10,728 nucleotides of DNA from Clostridiales bacterium (lineage in GTDB: Bacteria > Bacillota_A > Clostridia > Oscillospirales > Oscillospiraceae). The position numbers and the translations under genes are program-made. The notes under the pieces were generated by a model. It ran no database searches. It was not told where the DNA came from and saw only the letters and a list, made by a program, of their open reading frames with translations. Location of the stretch: the NCBI GenBank assembly GCA_014799485.1, contig JAAVHY010000005.1, positions 23,024-33,751 of the forward strand, in the 5' to 3' direction. Positions 3,193 to 9,974 of this stretch are shown piece after piece (the stretch's first letter is position 1; each line of letters opens with the position of its first letter).

Positions 3193-5421
3193 TCACCGCC
3201 TGCCCCGGCCCTGCGCCCCGCCCTTCCGGTCCCTGCGGAAGCAGACGTCGCACAGCCGCCCCCGGTGGTGCAGGGGCAGCGCCTTCCCGCAGCGGGCGCA
3301 GAAGCGGATATTGTTCCTCAGCTTGTAGAGCAGGATCTCGTTGATCTCGTCCGCCACCCGCTCCCGGGTGTCATACAGCTTGTCCCCGTCCACCGGGCAG
3401 TCAAAGGCCTTGGCAAAGGAAAAATAGAGGTCCAGCTTGCGGTAATACTGCTCCAGCTCCGGCAGGGTGGAGTCATCCTCCGGCAGACCGGGCTGTTCGA
3501 TGGGCTCCCCCCGCTGCCAGCGGTGGAGGAACTGGAAAAACAGCTCCCGCAGGGCGTCCTCCGTCTCGTCAAAGGGGATGTTGGCCGCCCGCAGCTCCTG
3601 CTCCCGGGTCAGGACAAAGCCCATCTCCCGCATTTTGGAGATGATCGTGATATACCGGGTGATGTCCAAACGGCGGTAAGGCTCCACCGTGGGCATCTGG
3701 TTCCACTGGGTCAGCACGTCCAGCAGGTCGAAGTCCACCTGGAGCACCAGGTCGGAAAACCCGGCCACCGCGTATTCCAGGGGCGGCACCGCCGCCTCCA
3801 AGCCCGCCTGGATGGCGGGCAGGTTCTGGGTAGCCCCCACGAAGCCCTTGTTGTACATCCCGAACCGGCCCGCCCGGCCCGCGATCTGCTTGATCTCCTC
3901 CGGCTTCAGGTCCCGGCGCTCCACGCCGTCAAATTTCTCCGTCTCCATAAAAATGATCCGCCGTATGGGCAGGTTCAGCCCCATGCCGATGGCATCGGTG
4001 GACACGATATACTCCATTTTTCCGTCAAGGAACCCCTCCATCTGCTTGCGGCGGGTGGAGTACGGCAGGGCCCCGTAGATGATGGCGGGCTCTTTGCCGC
4101 TCTGGCGCAGGTCCTCCGCCACGCTGAGCACCCCTACCTTGGAGAAGGTGATGAGGGCGTCCCCCGGCTGTACCCGCTGGTAGTCGATGGGGTGGCTCAT
4201 GCAGATCAGCGGCGTGGTGCGCTCGTGCGCCACCACCTCTACGCTGTCGCCGCAGCTCTCGATGAGGCGCAGGAGCAGCTCCCTGGCCTCGGGGGCGGCG
4301 CACAGGTGCACCTCCGGGGCCAGCACGCCCAGAATGGCCCGCGTCCAGGCGTAGCCCCGCTGGGCGTCGGCGATCATCTGGCACTCGTCGATCACCGCCA
4401 CGTCATACCGCCGCTTCATGTCCAGCTTTTCGGCGGTGGCCGCCAGGTGGGTGTCCCCCTCCCGGAAGTCCTCCTCCTCGCCGGTGGACAAGGAGCAGTC
4501 CACCCCGGCGTCCAGCAGGGCCTCCTGCCCTTCCAGCGCCAGCAGGCGCAGGGGGGCCAGGTACACCCCTGTTTTCGCCCGGATCAGCCGCTGGAACCCG
4601 GCGTAGGTCTTGCCGGTGTTGGTGCCGCCCAGGTGGAGGACAAAGCGGCGGTGCATGGCCCGGGCCTCGGGGTATTCGTCCTTGGGGTTGAGGGCGATGA
4701 GCAGGGACAGGCTGGTGCGGATGGCCTGGGGGACATACCACACCGACCAGACGGTGCCCAGCCCTTCCAGGAGGAGCTGCCCCGCCGGGAAGCCCTTGGC
4801 GCCCAGCAGGGCGGCCAAATCCGCTTCGGGCTGGGCGGCGGAAAAATCGGCCGCGGCCTGCCTCGCGGCGCTGTGGAGCACCGCGGGATACCGGGCGTAC
4901 ACCTCCGCCGCCATGGGGTGGCCGGGGTGCCCGCCCAGCCAGCCCCCCGCCCGGAGGAAGTTCTTGAAAAGCTCCGGCAGGCGCTTGCTGTCGCACCGCT
5001 GTTCCAGGGCCAGGAATTCGCCCAGCCAGGCCGTGGCCTGGGCGGAGCGCAGGCGGCTTTTCGCCGCGTCGGGCATACGGGCGAGGATGGCCCGGTGGTA
5101 CTGCCCCGCCAAAAGCCAGGGCAAGCCGTCGCCCTTCTCCGCCCCGTCCCAGCTCTTGGCCAGGGCGGCGCAGGCCCGTTTCGCGCCGGCGGCGGCCTGC
5201 GCGGCGGGGGTCTCCACGGCGGAGCCGTCCCCGTGCCCCGTGGTAAAGCGGGGATCGGCCTCCGCCAGACGCACGTCCTCCTTGGCCCAGACCCGGACAG
5301 AGTGGCCGTCGCCGGGGATGTAGCGGGGCTTTGGAAGCAGTTCCCGGATCAGGTCGTTGGTCCAGCCTCGCCGCTTCAGCAGGGACGCGGTCATATATTT
5401 TCCTCGGCCTCGTCCGGACAT
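3193..5421 (-). CDS. SUV3-like superfamily 2 RNA helicase with C-terminal zinc ribbon
   Basis: A 742-residue ATP-dependent helicase resembling mitochondrial SUV3. Visible motifs are Walker A GGTNTGKT (265-272), DECQ box (345-348; SUV3 has DEIQ), ARGWAWTR-like QRGYAWTR, STDAIGMGLNLPIRRIIF (474-491, almost identical to human SUV3 as I recall it), and QIAGRAGRFG (512-521). The C-terminal region resembles the SUV3 C-domain and ends in a CX2C-X12-CX2C zinc ribbon (C708, C711, C724, C727) with a basic tail. The first 260 residues are Ala-rich and carry a GWT-x2-LI-x2-LL motif (19-27). I chose the ATG at 5421 because AAGGGGG lies 7 bases upstream; an ATG at 5394 (GAGG, 7-base spacer) and a TTG at 5448 are alternatives. 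A good promoter lies upstream at 5485-5513. SUV3 works with PNPase in human mitochondria and with the RNase R-like Dss1 in yeast, so RNA turnover is the likely role; this is inference for this organism. Confidence 0.9.
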   Translation of the reverse strand: MSGRGRGKYMTASLLKRRGWTNDLIRELLPKPRYIPGDGHSVRVWAKEDVRLAEADPRFTTGHGDGSAVETPAAQAAAGAKRACAALAKSWDGAEKGDGLPWLLAGQYHRAILARMPDAAKSRLRSAQATAWLGEFLALEQRCDSKRLPELFKNFLRAGGWLGGHPGHPMAAEVYARYPAVLHSAARQAAADFSAAQPEADLAALLGAKGFPAGQLLLEGLGTVWSVWYVPQAIRTSLSLLIALNPKDEYPEARAMHRRFVLHLGGTNTGKTYAGFQRLIRAKTGVYLAPLRLLALEGQEALLDAGVDCSLSTGEEEDFREGDTHLAATAEKLDMKRRYDVAVIDECQMIADAQRGYAWTRAILGVLAPEVHLCAAPEARELLLRLIESCGDSVEVVAHERTTPLICMSHPIDYQRVQPGDALITFSKVGVLSVAEDLRQSGKEPAIIYGALPYSTRRKQMEGFLDGKMEYIVSTDAIGMGLNLPIRRIIFMETEKFDGVERRDLKPEEIKQIAGRAGRFGMYNKGFVGATQNLPAIQAGLEAAVPPLEYAVAGFSDLVLQVDFDLLDVLTQWNQMPTVEPYRRLDITRYITIISKMREMGFVLTREQELRAANIPFDETEDALRELFFQFLHRWQRGEPIEQPGLPEDDSTLPELEQYYRKLDLYFSFAKAFDCPVDGDKLYDTRERVADEINEILLYKLRNNIRFCARCGKALPLHHRGRLCDVCFRRDRKGGAQGRGRR

Positions 5422-5484
5422 GGCGCTTCCCCCTTTCCCAATTGGCAATAAACATTAAAGAAGACTCGGTCTGATGCTTCCTAT

Positions 5485-5538: not shown

Positions 5539-5577
5539 GTCAAAATGCCGCCTGTTCTGATGAACAGGCGGCTTGAC
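5539..5577 (-). terminator. Intrinsic terminator of the macrodomain-sirtuin operon
   Basis: Perfect 11-bp stem, GCCGCCTGTTC (5547-5557) and GAACAGGCGGC (5562-5572), with a 4-base TGAT loop. On the minus strand the stem is followed by ATTTT. It starts only a few bases after the sirtuin TAA. An outer GTCAA/TTGAC pair flanks the stem. The position and T-run fit Rho-independent termination of the sirtuin transcript. The A-run on the other side of the stem faces the minus-strand gene, so no plus-strand function is proposed. Confidence 0.85.
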
Positions 5578-5579
5578 CG

Positions 5580-6455
5580 TTACGGATTTTTTACTTGTTC
5601 CAATACCTGTCCGATGTCCGCGTCCAGGCACAAGCTGCGCTTTTCGATTTCCGGGGGCGCGTATGCCTGCCCCCGGTTGACGCAGATATAGCTTGCTTTG
5701 GGGTTTTTGTAAACCTGCTGCCAGAAAGGATATTTGATGATGCCCGGCGTATTCATTCCCACGCCCAGCTCCAGATACAGGATTGCCCCATCACTGTGCC
5801 GGCGCACGAAGTCCTCATACCGCCGCGCCGCGGCATACCAGCCCTCGTCCTGCACAAAGGTATCGTCCGCCCGGAGGTTCATGCTCATGGGCTTCCCGCA
5901 TTTGGGGCAGCGGGGGATCAATTCGGACGGCACCCTCATATCCCGCTGTTCCTCAACCATTTGACGCACCGCGGCCTCGTTGTCATACGTCCTCTCGTGG
6001 CATGGCTCCGAGCACTGCCACAGGCCATAGTCCCCCTGGGTATAGAACAGCCGCTTTTTATCAAACCCCGCCTTTTGAAAGCAGTGGTCTACATTTGTGG
6101 TCAGGACAAAGTAATCTTTTCCCTCTACCAGCTTCAGCAGCGTATCGTAGACCGGCTTGGGTGGGTCCACATAGCGGTTCCAATAGATATTCCGGCTCCA
6201 ATAGGCCCACTGTTCCTCCAGCGTTTCATAGGGGTAAAAGCCCCCGGAGTACATATCCCGAAAGCCGTACTTGGCGGCGAAATCCGCAAAATGCTGTTCA
6301 AACCGCTGGCCTGAATAGGTAAATCCCGCGGAGGTGGACAGTCCCGCCCCCGCGCCGATCAGGATCGCGCCGGCATCCTCAATCGCCTGCTTCAGCTCCC
6401 CGATCCGGGCCGAGGATATTTCGGTAGATTTGCTTGTCTGTCTCCTTAAAAACAT
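5580..6455 (-). CDS. Macrodomain-linked class M sirtuin (SirTM-like NAD-dependent protein ADP-ribosyltransferase)
   Basis: A 291-residue Sir2-fold protein. The NAD-binding motif is GAGAGLSTSAGFTY (34-47), followed by TTNVDH (119-124, canonical TQNID) and QGDYG (140-144). Canonical sirtuins have the catalytic histidine at this last site; here it is Q140, as in class M sirtuins, where the equivalent Asn, Asp and Gln (here N121, D123, Q140) support ADP-ribosyl transfer rather than deacylation. Zinc is probably bound by C148, C152, C183 and C186. In Staphylococcus and Streptococcus, SirTM modifies a lipoylated GcvH-like carrier. The ATG at 6455 has AAGGTG 7 bases upstream and lies inside the end of the macrodomain gene (77-nt overlap), so the two are co-transcribed and probably coupled. 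A terminator follows the stop. Automated annotation might call it an NAD-dependent deacetylase, which the missing histidine argues against. The substrate in this organism is unknown. Confidence 0.92.
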   Translation of the reverse strand: MFLRRQTSKSTEISSARIGELKQAIEDAGAILIGAGAGLSTSAGFTYSGQRFEQHFADFAAKYGFRDMYSGGFYPYETLEEQWAYWSRNIYWNRYVDPPKPVYDTLLKLVEGKDYFVLTTNVDHCFQKAGFDKKRLFYTQGDYGLWQCSEPCHERTYDNEAAVRQMVEEQRDMRVPSELIPRCPKCGKPMSMNLRADDTFVQDEGWYAAARRYEDFVRRHSDGAILYLELGVGMNTPGIIKYPFWQQVYKNPKASYICVNRGQAYAPPEIEKRSLCLDADIGQVLEQVKNP

Positions 6456-7185
6456 TGAAAATCACCTTCTGGATGGAAGATCGCGTTTTGAGGAAGTCCG
6501 TTACGGTCTTGACCGCGATTTCGGCGGCTTCCTGGTTGGGAAAGCGGAATACCCCGGTGGAGATGCAGCAGAAGGCCACGCTTTCCAGGCCGTTCTCCGC
6601 GGCCAGCTCCAGGCAGGAGCGGTAGCAGGAGGCCAGCAGCTCCCGGTCACGCCGGGTCACGGCCCCCCCAATGATGGGGCCGACGGTATGCAGGACATAC
6701 CGGCTGGGCAGGTTGAACGCCGGGGTGATTTTGGCCTGCCCGGTGGGCTCCTCATACCCCTGCCGGTTCATCAGCTCATCGCAGTACAGCCGCAGCTGGA
6801 TGCCGCTCTTGCTGTGGATGATGTTATCAATGCAGGAATGGAGCGCGTGGAAACAGCCCCTCATGCCGCTGTTTGCCGCGTTGACGATGGCATCCACCTT
6901 TAAGGTGGTAATATCTCCCTGCCACAAGGCCAGCCGCCCGTCGGCACGGAGGGGCGGGAGAGCGCTGCCATCGACCACTCCCAACCTATCCCGCTCCGCC
7001 GACAAATACTCGTCCTGCGCCGTCAAAAATTCCTCAGCCACGGGCATGGGCGGGCGCACGTTCATCAGCGCCCGAAGCAGATCCTTCTGCCCCTGGGCAT
7101 CCTCCGGGATCACAATGCTTTTGTACTGTGCATCTTCCGCCAGCAGTTCCCGGATCAGATAGCGGCGTTGTTCTTCATGCGTCAT
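6379..7185 (-). CDS. Zinc-type macrodomain protein, protein-ADP-ribose hydrolase
   Basis: A 268-residue protein with an N-terminal region (1-80) and a macrodomain (about 83-258). Ligand-binding motifs are QGDIT (89-93), VNAANSGMRGCF (101-112), GPIIGG (169-174) and STGVFRFP (209-216). The stretch GCFHALHSCIDN carries C111, H116 and C118 in the Cys-His-Cys arrangement of zinc-dependent macrodomains such as the staphylococcal enzyme encoded beside SirTM. Those enzymes remove the ADP-ribose that SirTM adds. The length agrees with that family. I chose the ATG at 7185 because GGAGG lies 7 bases upstream; the frame is open to a TTG at 7242 but that has no ribosome binding site. The gene ends inside the sirtuin gene, and the conserved end of the fold (VIFNVFKETD, 241-250) shows that the overlap is not an artefact of a wrong stop. 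No clear promoter was found directly upstream. Confidence 0.93.
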   Translation of the reverse strand: MTHEEQRRYLIRELLAEDAQYKSIVIPEDAQGQKDLLRALMNVRPPMPVAEEFLTAQDEYLSAERDRLGVVDGSALPPLRADGRLALWQGDITTLKVDAIVNAANSGMRGCFHALHSCIDNIIHSKSGIQLRLYCDELMNRQGYEEPTGQAKITPAFNLPSRYVLHTVGPIIGGAVTRRDRELLASCYRSCLELAAENGLESVAFCCISTGVFRFPNQEAAEIAVKTVTDFLKTRSSIQKVIFNVFKETDKQIYRNILGPDRGAEAGD

Positions 7186-7244
7186 GCCCTTGCCTCCTGC
7201 CGTACCGCGGCTTGCCCTCAACGGTTCAGAAAAATGTTCCAACT

Positions 7245-7281
7245 CGGAAAGGGCGGGCCCGCCCGGGGCCCGCCCTTTCCG
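7245..7281 (-). terminator. Perfect 16-bp GC-rich stem-loop after the SLH metallophosphoesterase gene
   Basis: CGGAAAGGGCGGGCCC (7245-7260) and its exact reverse complement (7266-7281) flank a 5-base loop. It starts 23 bases after the stop of the SLH gene and lies about 60 bases before the macrodomain ATG. On the minus strand the nearest T-run (TTTTT) begins only about 11 bases after the stem, so it is not a textbook intrinsic terminator. It may terminate inefficiently, protect the upstream mRNA 3' end, or attenuate read-through into the macrodomain-sirtuin pair. Confidence 0.65.
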
Positions 7282-7304
7282 AAAAGCATCCCCTTACCAC
7301 AAAA

Positions 7305-9935
7305 TCACTTGGTGGGCAATGCGGCTTCCTGTCTTTCTACGATATCCATCTGATAGCGCATGAGGATGGTCGCGACCTGCGCGCGGGTCGCGCTGCCCTG
7401 CGGATTCAGCAGGAGCACGCCGCCCCGGTTTTCTCCCGCGATCAACCCTTCGGCCACCGCCCACGAAAGGGCCTCCTTGGCGTAGGCCGAAACATCTTTG
7501 CCATCCGGGAAGGATGAGAGGTCCGCCCGTTTTGTGGTGTCATACCCCTTCCAACAGGAGTATTGGTACAGCGCCACGGCCATCTGCTCCCGGGTCGCGT
7601 TCCCGGCCGGCAGGAATTTCAAACCGTCCGTATCGGGGAACATACTGTCCGACCAGGCCCACAGTACCGCGTCTGTGTAATACGTCCCGGAGGCGACATC
7701 GCTGAACGGGTTGCTGACGCTCACCACCGGCTTGCCGTCCATGCGCCACAGCACCGTCGCCAGCATCGCGCGGCTCATCGCCTCATCCGGCGCGAACCTC
7801 GACGCGCCCACACCATTAAAGAGGTTATGGCTGACCACATATTGCACTGCAGTATAGTGCCAATCGCCTGTCTTCACATCGCTGTACGGCAGGGCCATAG
7901 GGATCATGGGGATCTCGGTGATATCGATCCGCTCCCCGCAGCGGGCGCAATGGTGGGACCGCTCGCCGGCCGACGTCTCCGTTGCGGGGACGTCGATCGT
8001 CCAGCTGGAGGAGTACTCATGCCCCAGGGGCTTGACCCATTTCCGCTCCGCGCTGCCGCAGATCACACATACGCGCCGCCTTATCCCCGCGCTTGTACAG
8101 TCCGCCTCCGCCACCGATGTCCAGCTGCCATAGGAATGGCTCTCGCAGACAGGCCGTACAGCAGGATCGTCCGACCCCGTTGCGGAGCGGTATGTGGCGC
8201 GCAGCCTTAACGCGCCCGTGGGCATTGTGACCGTCAGCTCCGACTGCGCTGCATCCGTCTTGCTCAGCGTCACGTCTCCCAACTCGACTACCCACTTGTC
8301 AAAGATCTGCCCCTCGGGGGCCGCGTCGGCGGTGAATTTCACCTGTGCTCCGGGCACCGCTACGTCCAAGTCGGCGCTTCCGTTCTCTGCCCTAACGGTA
8401 TAACCTTCAAATTCGTAAATATAGAACAATGATGGATAGTCAAAATATCCATTAATCAGCTCACGGTGATTATAGTTCAGAACATATCCCCCGGCGCCAA
8501 AAGTATAGTAATCGCCGCTCACGCCCACCACCATAGGCATTCCTGGGGATTCCAGCGTGACTTTTGCGCTATCCCCGTCAGCCGTGAACGCCGCATACCG
8601 TGTGCCGTCTCCAATTTTCCAACCGCCGGAGTCACTGGTAAAGGTCCACTCCTTCGAGGAGGGATCTACATATATTCTGTCGCTGCCAGCGTCAACCTTC
8701 GATGCGGTTTCGAGGTCAAAACCCACACGTCCCTCCCTGTCCACCACGGTAGGCAGCATAAAGTAATACTTCGCCATATTGTCCGGGCGGCATATCAGTA
8801 CGTATTTGCCGCCGTCCACCAAATCACTGAGGTTCGTCACACGGGTGTAGCACGGATCTTCCTTCTGGGGCTCGGGGGGCAGCGGGGTAACTGTTTTCGT
8901 CAGCTTAACAGTTTGCGGCGATGAATACCGCCTGGTATTCGGGGGATACGCCGTCTCATTTTTATAACTGTTCGTAACTCCCACCGACTTGAGGTCATGC
9001 CGCCCGTTGGCATCATAACGCGCAACGGTCACTTGATCTTCGGAGATCTGGAACACCGTCATAGTCAGAGCGTCATCGGCTCCCTGATTGACATCCCGGT
9101 AGTAACCGACATACCCTGCGTTCATATAAGTGAACTGCAGCGTTTCTTCTTTAAAGACAGTTCGGCTGTCCTGAGCAATGAGAATCTTATCCCCTTTTGC
9201 CAGATAAATGGAAGATCCGCCCAGATAATCGTCCCATCCGTTGGAGTGGTCGTGCCCGAATAGGAAGAAAATGTTCAGTCCCGCCGCACCGGCCTCGTTG
9301 AGTACGTCGAAAATATAGTTCGCACACTGCCCGTCACCATCATTGACCGTTCGCATATTGTAATTGAGGGGCAAATGGGACAGAACGAAAATGGGTTTCG
9401 TGTACGAGTCTTCGCGCTTTTGATCCAGGTACTTTTTCAGATTCCACGCAGTCTCCTTTATCGTTTCTGGATTATTATTCCACCACATATAGTCGTCCTC
9501 GTTGATGACAAAAACGCCGTAAGCGCCGCTGGCGGGATCGTTATTGCCGCTTCCGGCCATCCCCGCCGATCCTATGCCGGAATCATGGTTTCCCTGTGTA
9601 AAAACCAGGTTTTCCGTCACGATACCGCTGACCGCTTCTTTCAATGCGGCTACGCCTTTCGCTGTTTCTCCTACTACATCCGCCTGATATAAATCATAGT
9701 CGTAATCACCACAGCACAAAAAGCCATCCGCGCTGTCGATCCCGGTTTGTTCTTTTATTACCTCAACAAGCCCTTTAACAAAATCTTTCCCCTCTTCGTT
9801 TCCATTCTCATTCTGGAAATCCGAGCAGGCGATCACCGTCGTGACCGCCCCGCTCTGCGGCGCGGCTTCCGCGATAGGGCTGCAGAAGCTGAACAGCAGG
9901 CTCAAGCAAATCAGTGCGGACAAAAACCTTTTCAT
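7305..9935 (-). CDS. Secreted SLH-anchored calcineurin-like metallophosphoesterase
   Basis: An 876-residue surface protein. Residues 1-25 are a Sec signal peptide, probably cut near AEA-A (23-25). The catalytic domain (about 30-310) has SDFQ (38-41), CCGDYDYD (75-82), GNHDSG (115-120), SHLPL (186-190) and GHDHSN (227-232), the metal-ligand series of calcineurin-like phosphoesterases; the usual first-motif His of DxH is Gln (Q41). A middle region (360-510) of unknown fold follows, then an InlB-type B-repeat-like domain (about 512-582), two Cys-X2-Cys modules (C623/C626 and C663/C666), and three SLH domains (about 684-727, 744-790, 807-860). SLH domains bind pyruvylated cell-wall polymer, so the enzyme should sit on the cell surface. 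The start is ATG at 9935, about 10 bases after GGAGGG; a GTG at 9953 is possible but overlaps that site. The substrate may be a phosphoester or nucleotide and is not determined. Confidence 0.92.
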   Translation of the reverse strand: MKRFLSALICLSLLFSFCSPIAEAAPQSGAVTTVIACSDFQNENGNEEGKDFVKGLVEVIKEQTGIDSADGFLCCGDYDYDLYQADVVGETAKGVAALKEAVSGIVTENLVFTQGNHDSGIGSAGMAGSGNNDPASGAYGVFVINEDDYMWWNNNPETIKETAWNLKKYLDQKREDSYTKPIFVLSHLPLNYNMRTVNDGDGQCANYIFDVLNEAGAAGLNIFFLFGHDHSNGWDDYLGGSSIYLAKGDKILIAQDSRTVFKEETLQFTYMNAGYVGYYRDVNQGADDALTMTVFQISEDQVTVARYDANGRHDLKSVGVTNSYKNETAYPPNTRRYSSPQTVKLTKTVTPLPPEPQKEDPCYTRVTNLSDLVDGGKYVLICRPDNMAKYYFMLPTVVDREGRVGFDLETASKVDAGSDRIYVDPSSKEWTFTSDSGGWKIGDGTRYAAFTADGDSAKVTLESPGMPMVVGVSGDYYTFGAGGYVLNYNHRELINGYFDYPSLFYIYEFEGYTVRAENGSADLDVAVPGAQVKFTADAAPEGQIFDKWVVELGDVTLSKTDAAQSELTVTMPTGALRLRATYRSATGSDDPAVRPVCESHSYGSWTSVAEADCTSAGIRRRVCVICGSAERKWVKPLGHEYSSSWTIDVPATETSAGERSHHCARCGERIDITEIPMIPMALPYSDVKTGDWHYTAVQYVVSHNLFNGVGASRFAPDEAMSRAMLATVLWRMDGKPVVSVSNPFSDVASGTYYTDAVLWAWSDSMFPDTDGLKFLPAGNATREQMAVALYQYSCWKGYDTTKRADLSSFPDGKDVSAYAKEALSWAVAEGLIAGENRGGVLLLNPQGSATRAQVATILMRYQMDIVERQEAALPTK

Positions 9936-9974
9936 TTTCAAAATTCCCTCCACTCTTTATTTTTGAAACGCTGT

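What the first reader, a model, noticed from the sequence alone, without database searches (positions are those of the whole stretch)
5580..7185. Two-gene Zn-macrodomain / class M sirtuin cassette without its lipoylation partners
The pair has the hallmark residues of the reversible ADP-ribosylation module described in Staphylococcus and Streptococcus: a macrodomain with C111/H116/C118 and a sirtuin with N121/D123/Q140 in place of the catalytic histidine. In those operons it sits with a GcvH-like lipoyl carrier and an LplA2 ligase. Here the flanking genes are an SLH metallophosphoesterase and an RNA helicase, and a terminator ends the pair. The substrate may be encoded elsewhere, or the cassette may modify a different target.
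Basis: partly seen in the sequence, partly recalled or inferred. Interest (0 to 1): 0.75.

Follow-up and report, generated by a model that had tools for sequence, protein, structure and literature searches.

The report
Lone ADP-ribosylation writer and eraser pair
Two overlapping genes encode an enzyme predicted to attach ADP-ribose to proteins and one predicted to remove it; such lone pairs are already known, but related gut bacteria often keep the pair beside redox genes, which points to a target other than the known lipoate-carrying protein.

Summary
Window 6379-7185 (-) encodes a zinc macrodomain (Cx4HxC, NAAN, Dx3H); 5580-6455 (-) a class M sirtuin (N121, D123, Q140-G, R195, GVGMNTP). They overlap by 77 nt; no lipoyl genes lie nearby. 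That absence is not new: Rack 2015 and Ariza 2024 describe lone pairs, and the one lone-pair Zn-Macro assayed in 2024 (an archaeal one) did not demodify GcvH-L. In relatives, no GcvH-L or LplA2 match was found in 80 sirtuin loci. A full-length GcvH occurs in 21 of 114 sirtuin-bearing genomes searched; in the closest relative (84-85% identical sirtuin) it belongs to a canonical glycine-cleavage operon on another contig. The sirtuin lies in class M, far from deacylases. No report was found, in the papers searched, of the clostridial neighbourhoods: within 4 kb upstream lie an HxlR-family regulator (38 of 80 loci), a PNPOx/4Fe-4S protein (27), an NmrA-like protein (15) or an ACGX-type radical SAM enzyme (15), and almost none downstream. 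ACGX maturase and sirtuin co-occur in two family samples (22/24, 23/28 genomes). The window has none of these. Verdict: new member of a known kind, with a testable redox lead on the open substrate question.

The parts
6379..7185 (-). Zn-macrodomain gene (predicted protein-ADP-ribose hydrolase, 268 aa)
5580..6455 (-). class M sirtuin (SirTM) gene (predicted mono-ADP-ribosyltransferase, 291 aa)
6379..6455 (-). 77-nt overlap of the two frames, suggesting translational coupling
7193..7198 (-). AGGAGG, ribosome-binding-site-like, before the macrodomain
   Evidence: read from sequence
6463..6470 (-). AGAAGGTG, ribosome-binding-site-like, before the sirtuin and inside the macrodomain frame
   Evidence: read from sequence
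5541..5572 (-). hairpin plus short T-run after the sirtuin, probable terminator
   Evidence: -27.8 kcal/mol, z -6.1; not listed by the consensus scan
7245..7281 (-). GC-rich hairpin between the upstream gene and the pair, possibly ending the upstream transcript
   Evidence: stretch 7215-7300, z -3.4; no adjacent T-run

Best explanation
The two genes form a writer/eraser unit, probably translationally coupled. The SirTM uses NAD+ to put a single ADP-ribose on a target protein (no deacylation, because Gln replaces the catalytic His). The Zn-Macro removes it, its zinc polarising the glycosidic bond. This is inferred from homology and conserved catalytic residues; no activity was measured. The target is not a GcvH-L/LplA2 lipoyl carrier but another protein encoded elsewhere, most likely part of a redox or electrophile response, because that is the company the pair keeps in relatives. 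This last step is inference from neighbourhoods that the window itself lacks.
For: Families and structures. Catalytic and zinc residues: (N-D-QG in 97 of 109 sirtuin-like ORFs examined, CHC in 77 of 81 macrodomain-like ORFs), read against PMC11490716 section 4 and PMC4518038 section 15. Tree. No GcvH-L, LplA2 or LLM match in the window or the 80 loci L001-L080, with Staphylococcus (L101) and Aerococcus (L102) loci as positive controls. Full-length GcvH in 5 of 39 and 16 of 75 sirtuin-bearing genomes. LplA in 8 of 30. GcvH-L contact residues given for SpyMacro (R172, K175, R183) and SauMacro (R175, R176) are Ile, gap, Asp and Gly-Gly here (the residue numbering was mapped by me from the PDB chain alignment). 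Redox-type neighbours in relatives.
Against: The window has no such neighbour and its genome is not held, so a distant gcvH-L cannot be excluded. The closest relative G068 does have GcvH and LplA genes, so the machinery for a lipoyl target may exist in this lineage. Many relatives are incomplete assemblies, so absences are weak. Other arginines stand close to the replaced contact positions. Some related loci hold the sirtuin without a macrodomain. No enzymatic data.
Confidence: 0.72

Rival explanations
1. The target is a lipoylated GcvH encoded elsewhere in the same genome (the classical system with its genes split up).
For: G068, with the sirtuin nearest to the window's, has a GcvH and two LplA-type ligase matches.
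Against: That GcvH is a 124-aa GCV_H protein beside GCV_T and two GDC-P proteins. Rack 2015 reports that SirTMs did not modify the canonical GcvHs of S. aureus and E. coli (passage); Ariza 2024 that MorMacro, from a minimal pair operon, and fusion Zn-Macros did not demodify GcvH-L (passage; the bacterial lone-pair members were modelled, not assayed). 93 of 114 sirtuin-bearing genomes show no full-length GcvH.
Confidence: 0.1
2. The pair is a toxin-antitoxin or anti-phage module: the sirtuin harms cell or phage by NAD use or ADP-ribosylation, the macrodomain protects (DarTG-like logic).
For: Writer/eraser adjacency; a different location in the closest relative; occurrence on plasmid records.
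Against: No PADLOC match for either protein. Recurrent neighbours are redox-type genes and regulators. Some related loci have the sirtuin without a macrodomain nearby, which an antidote-dependent toxin would hardly allow.
Confidence: 0.07
3. The sirtuin is a deacylase and the macrodomain hydrolyses its by-product O-acetyl-ADP-ribose.
For: RefSeq names such sirtuins 'Sir2 silent information regulator family NAD-dependent deacetylase'.
Against: Q140 replaces the catalytic His; the tree separates it from canonical sirtuins of sirtuin-bearing genomes by long branches with full support; five of five genomes searched hold a separate strong Pfam SIR2 match.
Confidence: 0.03

Closest known systems
Lone SirTM/Zn-Macro pair ('independent operon', Rack 2015; 'operon' branch, Ariza 2024, e.g. 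Methanobrevibacter oralis, Enterococcus faecalis, Treponema pedis)
   Same: Two adjacent genes, class M sirtuin plus Zn-Macro, no lipoyl genes; strains of Clostridiaceae and Lachnospiraceae are already named as SirTM carriers (passages).
   Different: Nothing essential. Different species; window neighbours are a Suv3-type helicase and an SLH phosphoesterase.
Extended SirTM operon (GcvH-L, Zn-Macro, SirTM, LplA2, OYE, LLM) of Staphylococcaceae/Lactobacillales
   Same: Same two enzyme families, same gene order Macro then SirTM.
   Different: No GcvH-L, LplA2 or LLM match (OYE was not searched); GcvH-L contact residues of the macrodomain not kept; the two extended-operon sirtuins in the tree form their own clade.
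Clostridial redox-type cassette seen here (HxlR | NmrA-like, or ACGX peptide + radical SAM + nitroreductase | PNPOx-4Fe4S | Zn-Macro | SirTM), e.g. Roseburia sp. 831b plasmid, locus L104
   Same: Same pair; the window sirtuin sits inside this radiation.
   Different: Window lacks all the accessory genes.

Membership tests
class M sirtuin (SirTM) | Gln-Gly in place of the catalytic His-Gly | tested here: met
   Q140-G141
class M sirtuin (SirTM) | Catalytic Asn118 and Arg192 (S. pyogenes numbering) | tested here: met
   N121 and R195
class M sirtuin (SirTM) | GVGx[NT]TP motif | tested here: met
   GVGMNTP
class M sirtuin (SirTM) | Adjacent macrodomain gene of the Zn-Macro kind | tested here: met
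class M sirtuin (SirTM) | Tree position apart from deacylases | tested here: met
   (quick tree, LG+G4, 62 rows, SH-aLRT 100 for the split from four canonical sirtuins)
class M sirtuin (SirTM) | ADP-ribosyltransferase activity without deacylase activity | not testable with these tools
   needs an assay
Zn-Macro | Cx4HxC zinc loop | tested here: met
   C111-x4-H116-x-C118
Zn-Macro | NAAN motif and Dx3H dyad | tested here: met
   N102-A-A-N105 and D120-x3-H124, read
Zn-Macro | N-terminal extension (three-helix bundle in solved members) | tested here: met
   about 80 residues before the macro fold, aligned from residue 1 with 8rsi; helices not modelled
Extended GcvH-L/LplA2 operon | gcvH-L and lplA2 beside the pair | tested here: not met
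   with L101/L102 as positive controls
Extended GcvH-L/LplA2 operon | Basic GcvH-L contact residues on the macrodomain | tested here: not met
   SpyMacro R172/K175/R183 and SauMacro R175/R176 positions are I/gap/D and G-G (numbering mapped by me); other Arg lie nearby (TVGPIIGGAVTRRDRELL)
Clostridial redox-type cassette | HxlR, PNPOx-4Fe4S, NmrA-like or ACGX genes within 4 kb upstream | tested here: not met
   the upstream gene is the SLH phosphoesterase

The most novel reading that the evidence does not exclude
In gut Clostridia the SirTM/Zn-Macro pair serves a lipoate-independent redox system. Where the ACGX system is present, its Cys-rich peptide (repeats such as ACGSACGAGDKPEEKPA, with paired cysteines next to Asp/Glu/Lys) takes the place of lipoyl-GcvH-L as the dithiol carrier that is ADP-ribosylated on an acidic or cysteine residue. 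Lone pairs such as the window's act on the same kind of thiol-redox partner encoded elsewhere.
Probability: 0.14. Interest if true: 0.78.

Novelty: new member of a known kind. Interest (0 to 1): 0.42.

Why it matters
The targets of SirTM/Zn-Macro pairs outside the lipoyl operon are stated to be unknown (Ariza 2024, passage). The survey done here shows that in two gut-bacterial family samples the sirtuin is common (88 of 300 and 98 of 230 genomes) and often stands in redox-type gene runs. It names specific candidate partners (ACGX peptide, PNPOx-4Fe4S protein, NmrA-like protein) that can be purified and tested. It also weakens the view that the system is mainly a pathogen trait.

Tried and rejected
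Own genome: not held, so gcvH/lplA were searched in relatives only. First gene calling by longest ORF was misleading in this GC-rich DNA: antisense ORFs displaced real genes (including the window helicase), and a 205-aa PNPOx-4Fe4S protein was lumped with the macrodomain; replaced by profile searches of six-frame ORFs. Suv3 linkage: Evtepia (L058/L100) also has suv3 near the pair, on the other side; 1 of 80 loci, judged chance. Synteny with the closest relative: pair and suv3 lie on different contigs in G068, so no shared insertion site could be shown. MATE and aldo/keto reductase neighbours are not enriched near the pair and were dropped. A further recurrent upstream family ('c8', 10 of 80 loci) has no Pfam match and stays unidentified. 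Defence reading: no PADLOC hit. Phage collection: three records, the best being an unverified 5.5-kb record that carries the staphylococcal extended operon, not evidence of phage carriage. Fusion of PNPOx-4Fe4S with macrodomain: two joint frames, L006 with only 39 residues of the former and L033 with only part of the macrodomain; not taken as evidence. Structure prediction was not run, since solved relatives match both proteins over nearly their whole length.

The sirtuin-only loci lowered the toxin-antitoxin rival from 0.08 to 0.07; no other odds were changed.

Full report
OBSERVATION. The minus strand of the window encodes a 268-aa macrodomain protein (6379-7185) and a 291-aa sirtuin (5580-6455) whose frames overlap by 77 nt. 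AGGAGG precedes the macrodomain ATG, and AGAAGGTG lies inside the macrodomain frame 7 nt before the sirtuin ATG, so translational coupling is likely. A strong hairpin follows the sirtuin; its T-run is short and the consensus scan does not list it. A second GC-rich hairpin separates the pair from the upstream SLH/metallophosphoesterase gene. The downstream gene is a Suv3-type helicase. The GC content of the pair (about 58-60%) lies within the range of the window.

IDENTITY. The macrodomain exceeds the NCBIfam cut-off for PRK04143 (356 against 272 bits) and its closest PDB chains are the Zn-Macros 8rsi, 5kiv, 8rsl and 8rsm. It has Cx4HxC (C111, H116, C118), NAAN (102-105), Dx3H (D120, H124) and the N-terminal extension, the features given for Zn-Macros in PMC11490716 section 4. 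The sirtuin scores below the Pfam SIR2 cut-off (20.5 against 24 bits) but matches 5a3a, deposited with the SirTM paper, at E 1.9e-78, and the fungal fusion 8rsn. N121, D123, Q140-G141, R195 and GVGMNTP correspond to N118, D120, Q137, R192 and GVGx[NT]TP of PMC4518038 section 15. In a quick tree of 62 sequences canonical sirtuins from four genomes that also hold the class M sirtuin form their own clade (SH-aLRT 100), the two extended-operon sirtuins form another (100), and the window sirtuin sits with the one of genome G068 (96; 84-85% identical) inside the clostridial class M radiation. Of 59 inner branches 26 have support under 80, and the program warned about long branches (L119 rows; L103 with the extended-operon rows).

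KNOWN OR NEW. Rack 2015 (PMC4518038; outline, passages, sections 15 and 29 seen) states that SirTM/macrodomain genes occur as independent operons or in extended operons, and names strains of Clostridiaceae and Lachnospiraceae among carriers. Ariza 2024 (PMC11490716; outline, passages, sections 4 and 6 seen) reports that MorMacro, from a minimal pair operon, and fusion-derived Zn-Macros do not demodify SpyGcvH-L while SpyMacro of the extended operon does; the lone-pair Zn-Macros of Enterococcus faecalis and Treponema pedis were modelled with GcvH-L, with low confidence for the complex; the targets of other pairs are called elusive. A two-gene pair without lipoyl genes is therefore a described kind. 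Their supplementary tables were not read.

IS A LIPOYL PARTNER ELSEWHERE? The window's genome is not held. Queries made from the Aerococcus and Staphylococcus operons (GcvH-L, LplA2, LLM; L102, L101) match neither the window nor any of the 80 loci L001-L080 at E 1e-2 (many loci are short of 10 kb flanks). Full-length GcvH (E below 1e-30) occurs in 5 of 39 and 16 of 75 sirtuin-bearing genomes; weaker hits are short stretches of lipoyl/biotinyl type. LplA (TIGR00545) occurs in 8 of 30. The closest relative G068 has a 124-aa GCV_H protein beside GCV_T and two GDC-P proteins, and two LplA-type matches, all on contigs other than the sirtuin's. The macrodomain lacks the basic residues said to lie near the lipoyl lysine in the SpyMacro and SauMacro models (Ile, gap, Asp and Gly-Gly instead of R172, K175, R183 and R175, R176; numbering mapped by me), although other arginines stand close by. 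Together this makes a GcvH-L target unlikely but not excluded.

NEIGHBOURHOODS. Profile searches of 83 loci (L001-L080, L098, L099, window) found the macrodomain near the sirtuin in 72. Of the 11 others, L033 has a partial macrodomain, L017, L038 and L076 have under 2 kb upstream, and seven (L014, L019, L034, L036, L061, L064, L074) have over 9 kb upstream without a macrodomain match within 8 kb. Where a macrodomain lies within 3 kb, it stands upstream on the same strand in 67 of 70 of L001-L080. Within 4 kb upstream of the sirtuin in the 80 loci lie an HxlR-family regulator in 38, a PNPOx_N plus 4Fe-4S protein in 27, an NmrA-like NAD(P)H-binding protein in 15, an ACGX-type radical SAM enzyme in 15 and a nitroreductase in 13; in the 4 kb downstream the same five number 2, 0, 1, 0 and 0. 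MATE (5 against 2) and aldo/keto reductase (2 against 2) are not enriched. All these families were picked because they recurred near the pair, so only the contrast between sides, and with the two unenriched families, is informative. Identities rest on tested representatives: TIGR04340 596 bits (cut-off 400), TIGR04341 112 bits (cut-off 28); HxlR PF01638 in three of three tested; PNPOx_N plus Fer4 in two of two. The HxlR protein tested with NCBIfam resembles the redox regulator RrpB at 139 bits, below its cut-off of 175. The other members were found by profiles made from single representatives; 14 of the 16 radical SAM loci score above 370 bits against the L009 profile with 12 of them above 630, and L041 (116) is weak. 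ACGX peptides were read in 14 of the 80 loci, 13 of which are radical SAM loci, and on two plasmid records (L008 matched the loose pattern but is not an ACGX peptide). A Roseburia sp. 831b plasmid carries, divergent from an HxlR regulator, acgA, acgM, nitroreductase, PNPOx-4Fe4S protein, Zn-Macro, SirTM and DUF1848 in one run. Enterococcus casseliflavus and Treponema saccharophilum pairs stand with Rrf2 regulators, an SDR or NAD(P)H-binding protein and a PNPOx protein. In G068 the gene just upstream of the pair is a lactate/malate dehydrogenase.

CO-OCCURRENCE. In 300 genomes of G001's family, sirtuin hits of at least about 49% identity occur in 88, ACGX maturase over the cut-off in 24, strong PNPOx-4Fe4S hits (E below about 1e-29, a few of them partial) in 41. 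Maturase and sirtuin share 22 of 24 genomes (Fisher p 4e-11) and 9 of 26 maturase copies lie within 8 kb of the sirtuin; PNPOx-4Fe4S and sirtuin share 36 of 41 (p 4e-17), 23 of 43 copies within 8 kb. A second family (230 genomes of G033's family, somewhat different limits; sirtuin in 98) gives 23 of 28 (p 6e-6; 15 of 29 copies within 8 kb) and 50 of 53 (p 2e-19; 31 of 57). The tests ignore kinship, so the p-values are too small. On the sirtuin tree the label ACGX needs 6 changes for 6 rows, but well-supported branches force only 2, so repeated joining is suggested, not shown. In the first family most maturase copies (17 of 26) are not beside the sirtuin, some of them on other contigs of fragmented assemblies. 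No held paper contains both 'SirTM' and 'radical SAM', and searches for ACGX, acgA/acgM and class M sirtuin terms listed no report of the association (listings only, of open-licence papers).

MECHANISM. Shown: gene anatomy, family membership by residues and tree, no lipoyl genes nearby, redox-type neighbourhoods in relatives. Inferred from published work on homologs: NAD+-dependent mono-ADP-ribosylation by the sirtuin and zinc-dependent reversal. Inferred here: a non-GcvH-L target, probably in thiol or flavin redox metabolism. Speculative: the ACGX peptide as a dithiol carrier replacing lipoyl-GcvH-L. Against over-reading: the window itself, and its nearest relative G068, lack HxlR, ACGX and PNPOx-4Fe4S genes beside the pair, and G068 has no ACGX maturase over the cut-off and no strong PNPOx-4Fe4S hit.

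VERDICT. The finding is correct in fact and ordinary in kind. Its value lies in the survey it led to, which turns 'unknown target' into named candidates.

Noticed in passing
L114 4698-6442, L115 4261-7020, L116 5542-7355, L119 3995-6167, L120 1680-3491: Tandem divergent SirTM-like sirtuins (about 30-40% identical to the window's). The upstream copy keeps QG and Arg; the last copy has EG and lacks the Arg, so it may be a partner pseudoenzyme. In Paenibacillus sp. 37 (L120) they stand with nicotinate phosphoribosyltransferase and an isochorismatase-family hydrolase.
   Followed up: partly
L104 1177-6897: Plasmid-borne cassette in Roseburia sp. 831b: divergent HxlR regulator, ACGX peptide, its radical SAM enzyme, nitroreductase, PNPOx-4Fe4S protein, Zn-Macro, SirTM, DUF1848.
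   Followed up: yes
L014, L019, L034, L036, L061, L064, L074: Class M sirtuin with over 9 kb of upstream sequence but no macrodomain match within 8 kb; in L014, L036 and L061 an HxlR gene lies within 2 kb upstream of the sirtuin.
   Followed up: partly
window 3193-5448: Suv3-type RNA helicase downstream of the pair. In Evtepia gabavorous (L100) a Suv3 C-terminal part ends about 1 kb upstream of the macrodomain gene, with an NmrA-like gene between.
   Followed up: partly
L117 5354-8140: Macrodomain followed by split SirTM frames and then a second, full-length SirTM frame, suggesting decay beside a duplicate.
   Followed up: no
L101 1524-5524: An unverified record labelled Staphylococcus phage holds the staphylococcal LLM, GcvH-L, Zn-Macro, SirTM, LplA2 operon, probably host DNA.
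   Followed up: partly
window 7305-9938: Predicted SLH protein with a calcineurin-like phosphoesterase domain and a divergent InlB B-repeat, probably cell-surface.
   Followed up: no
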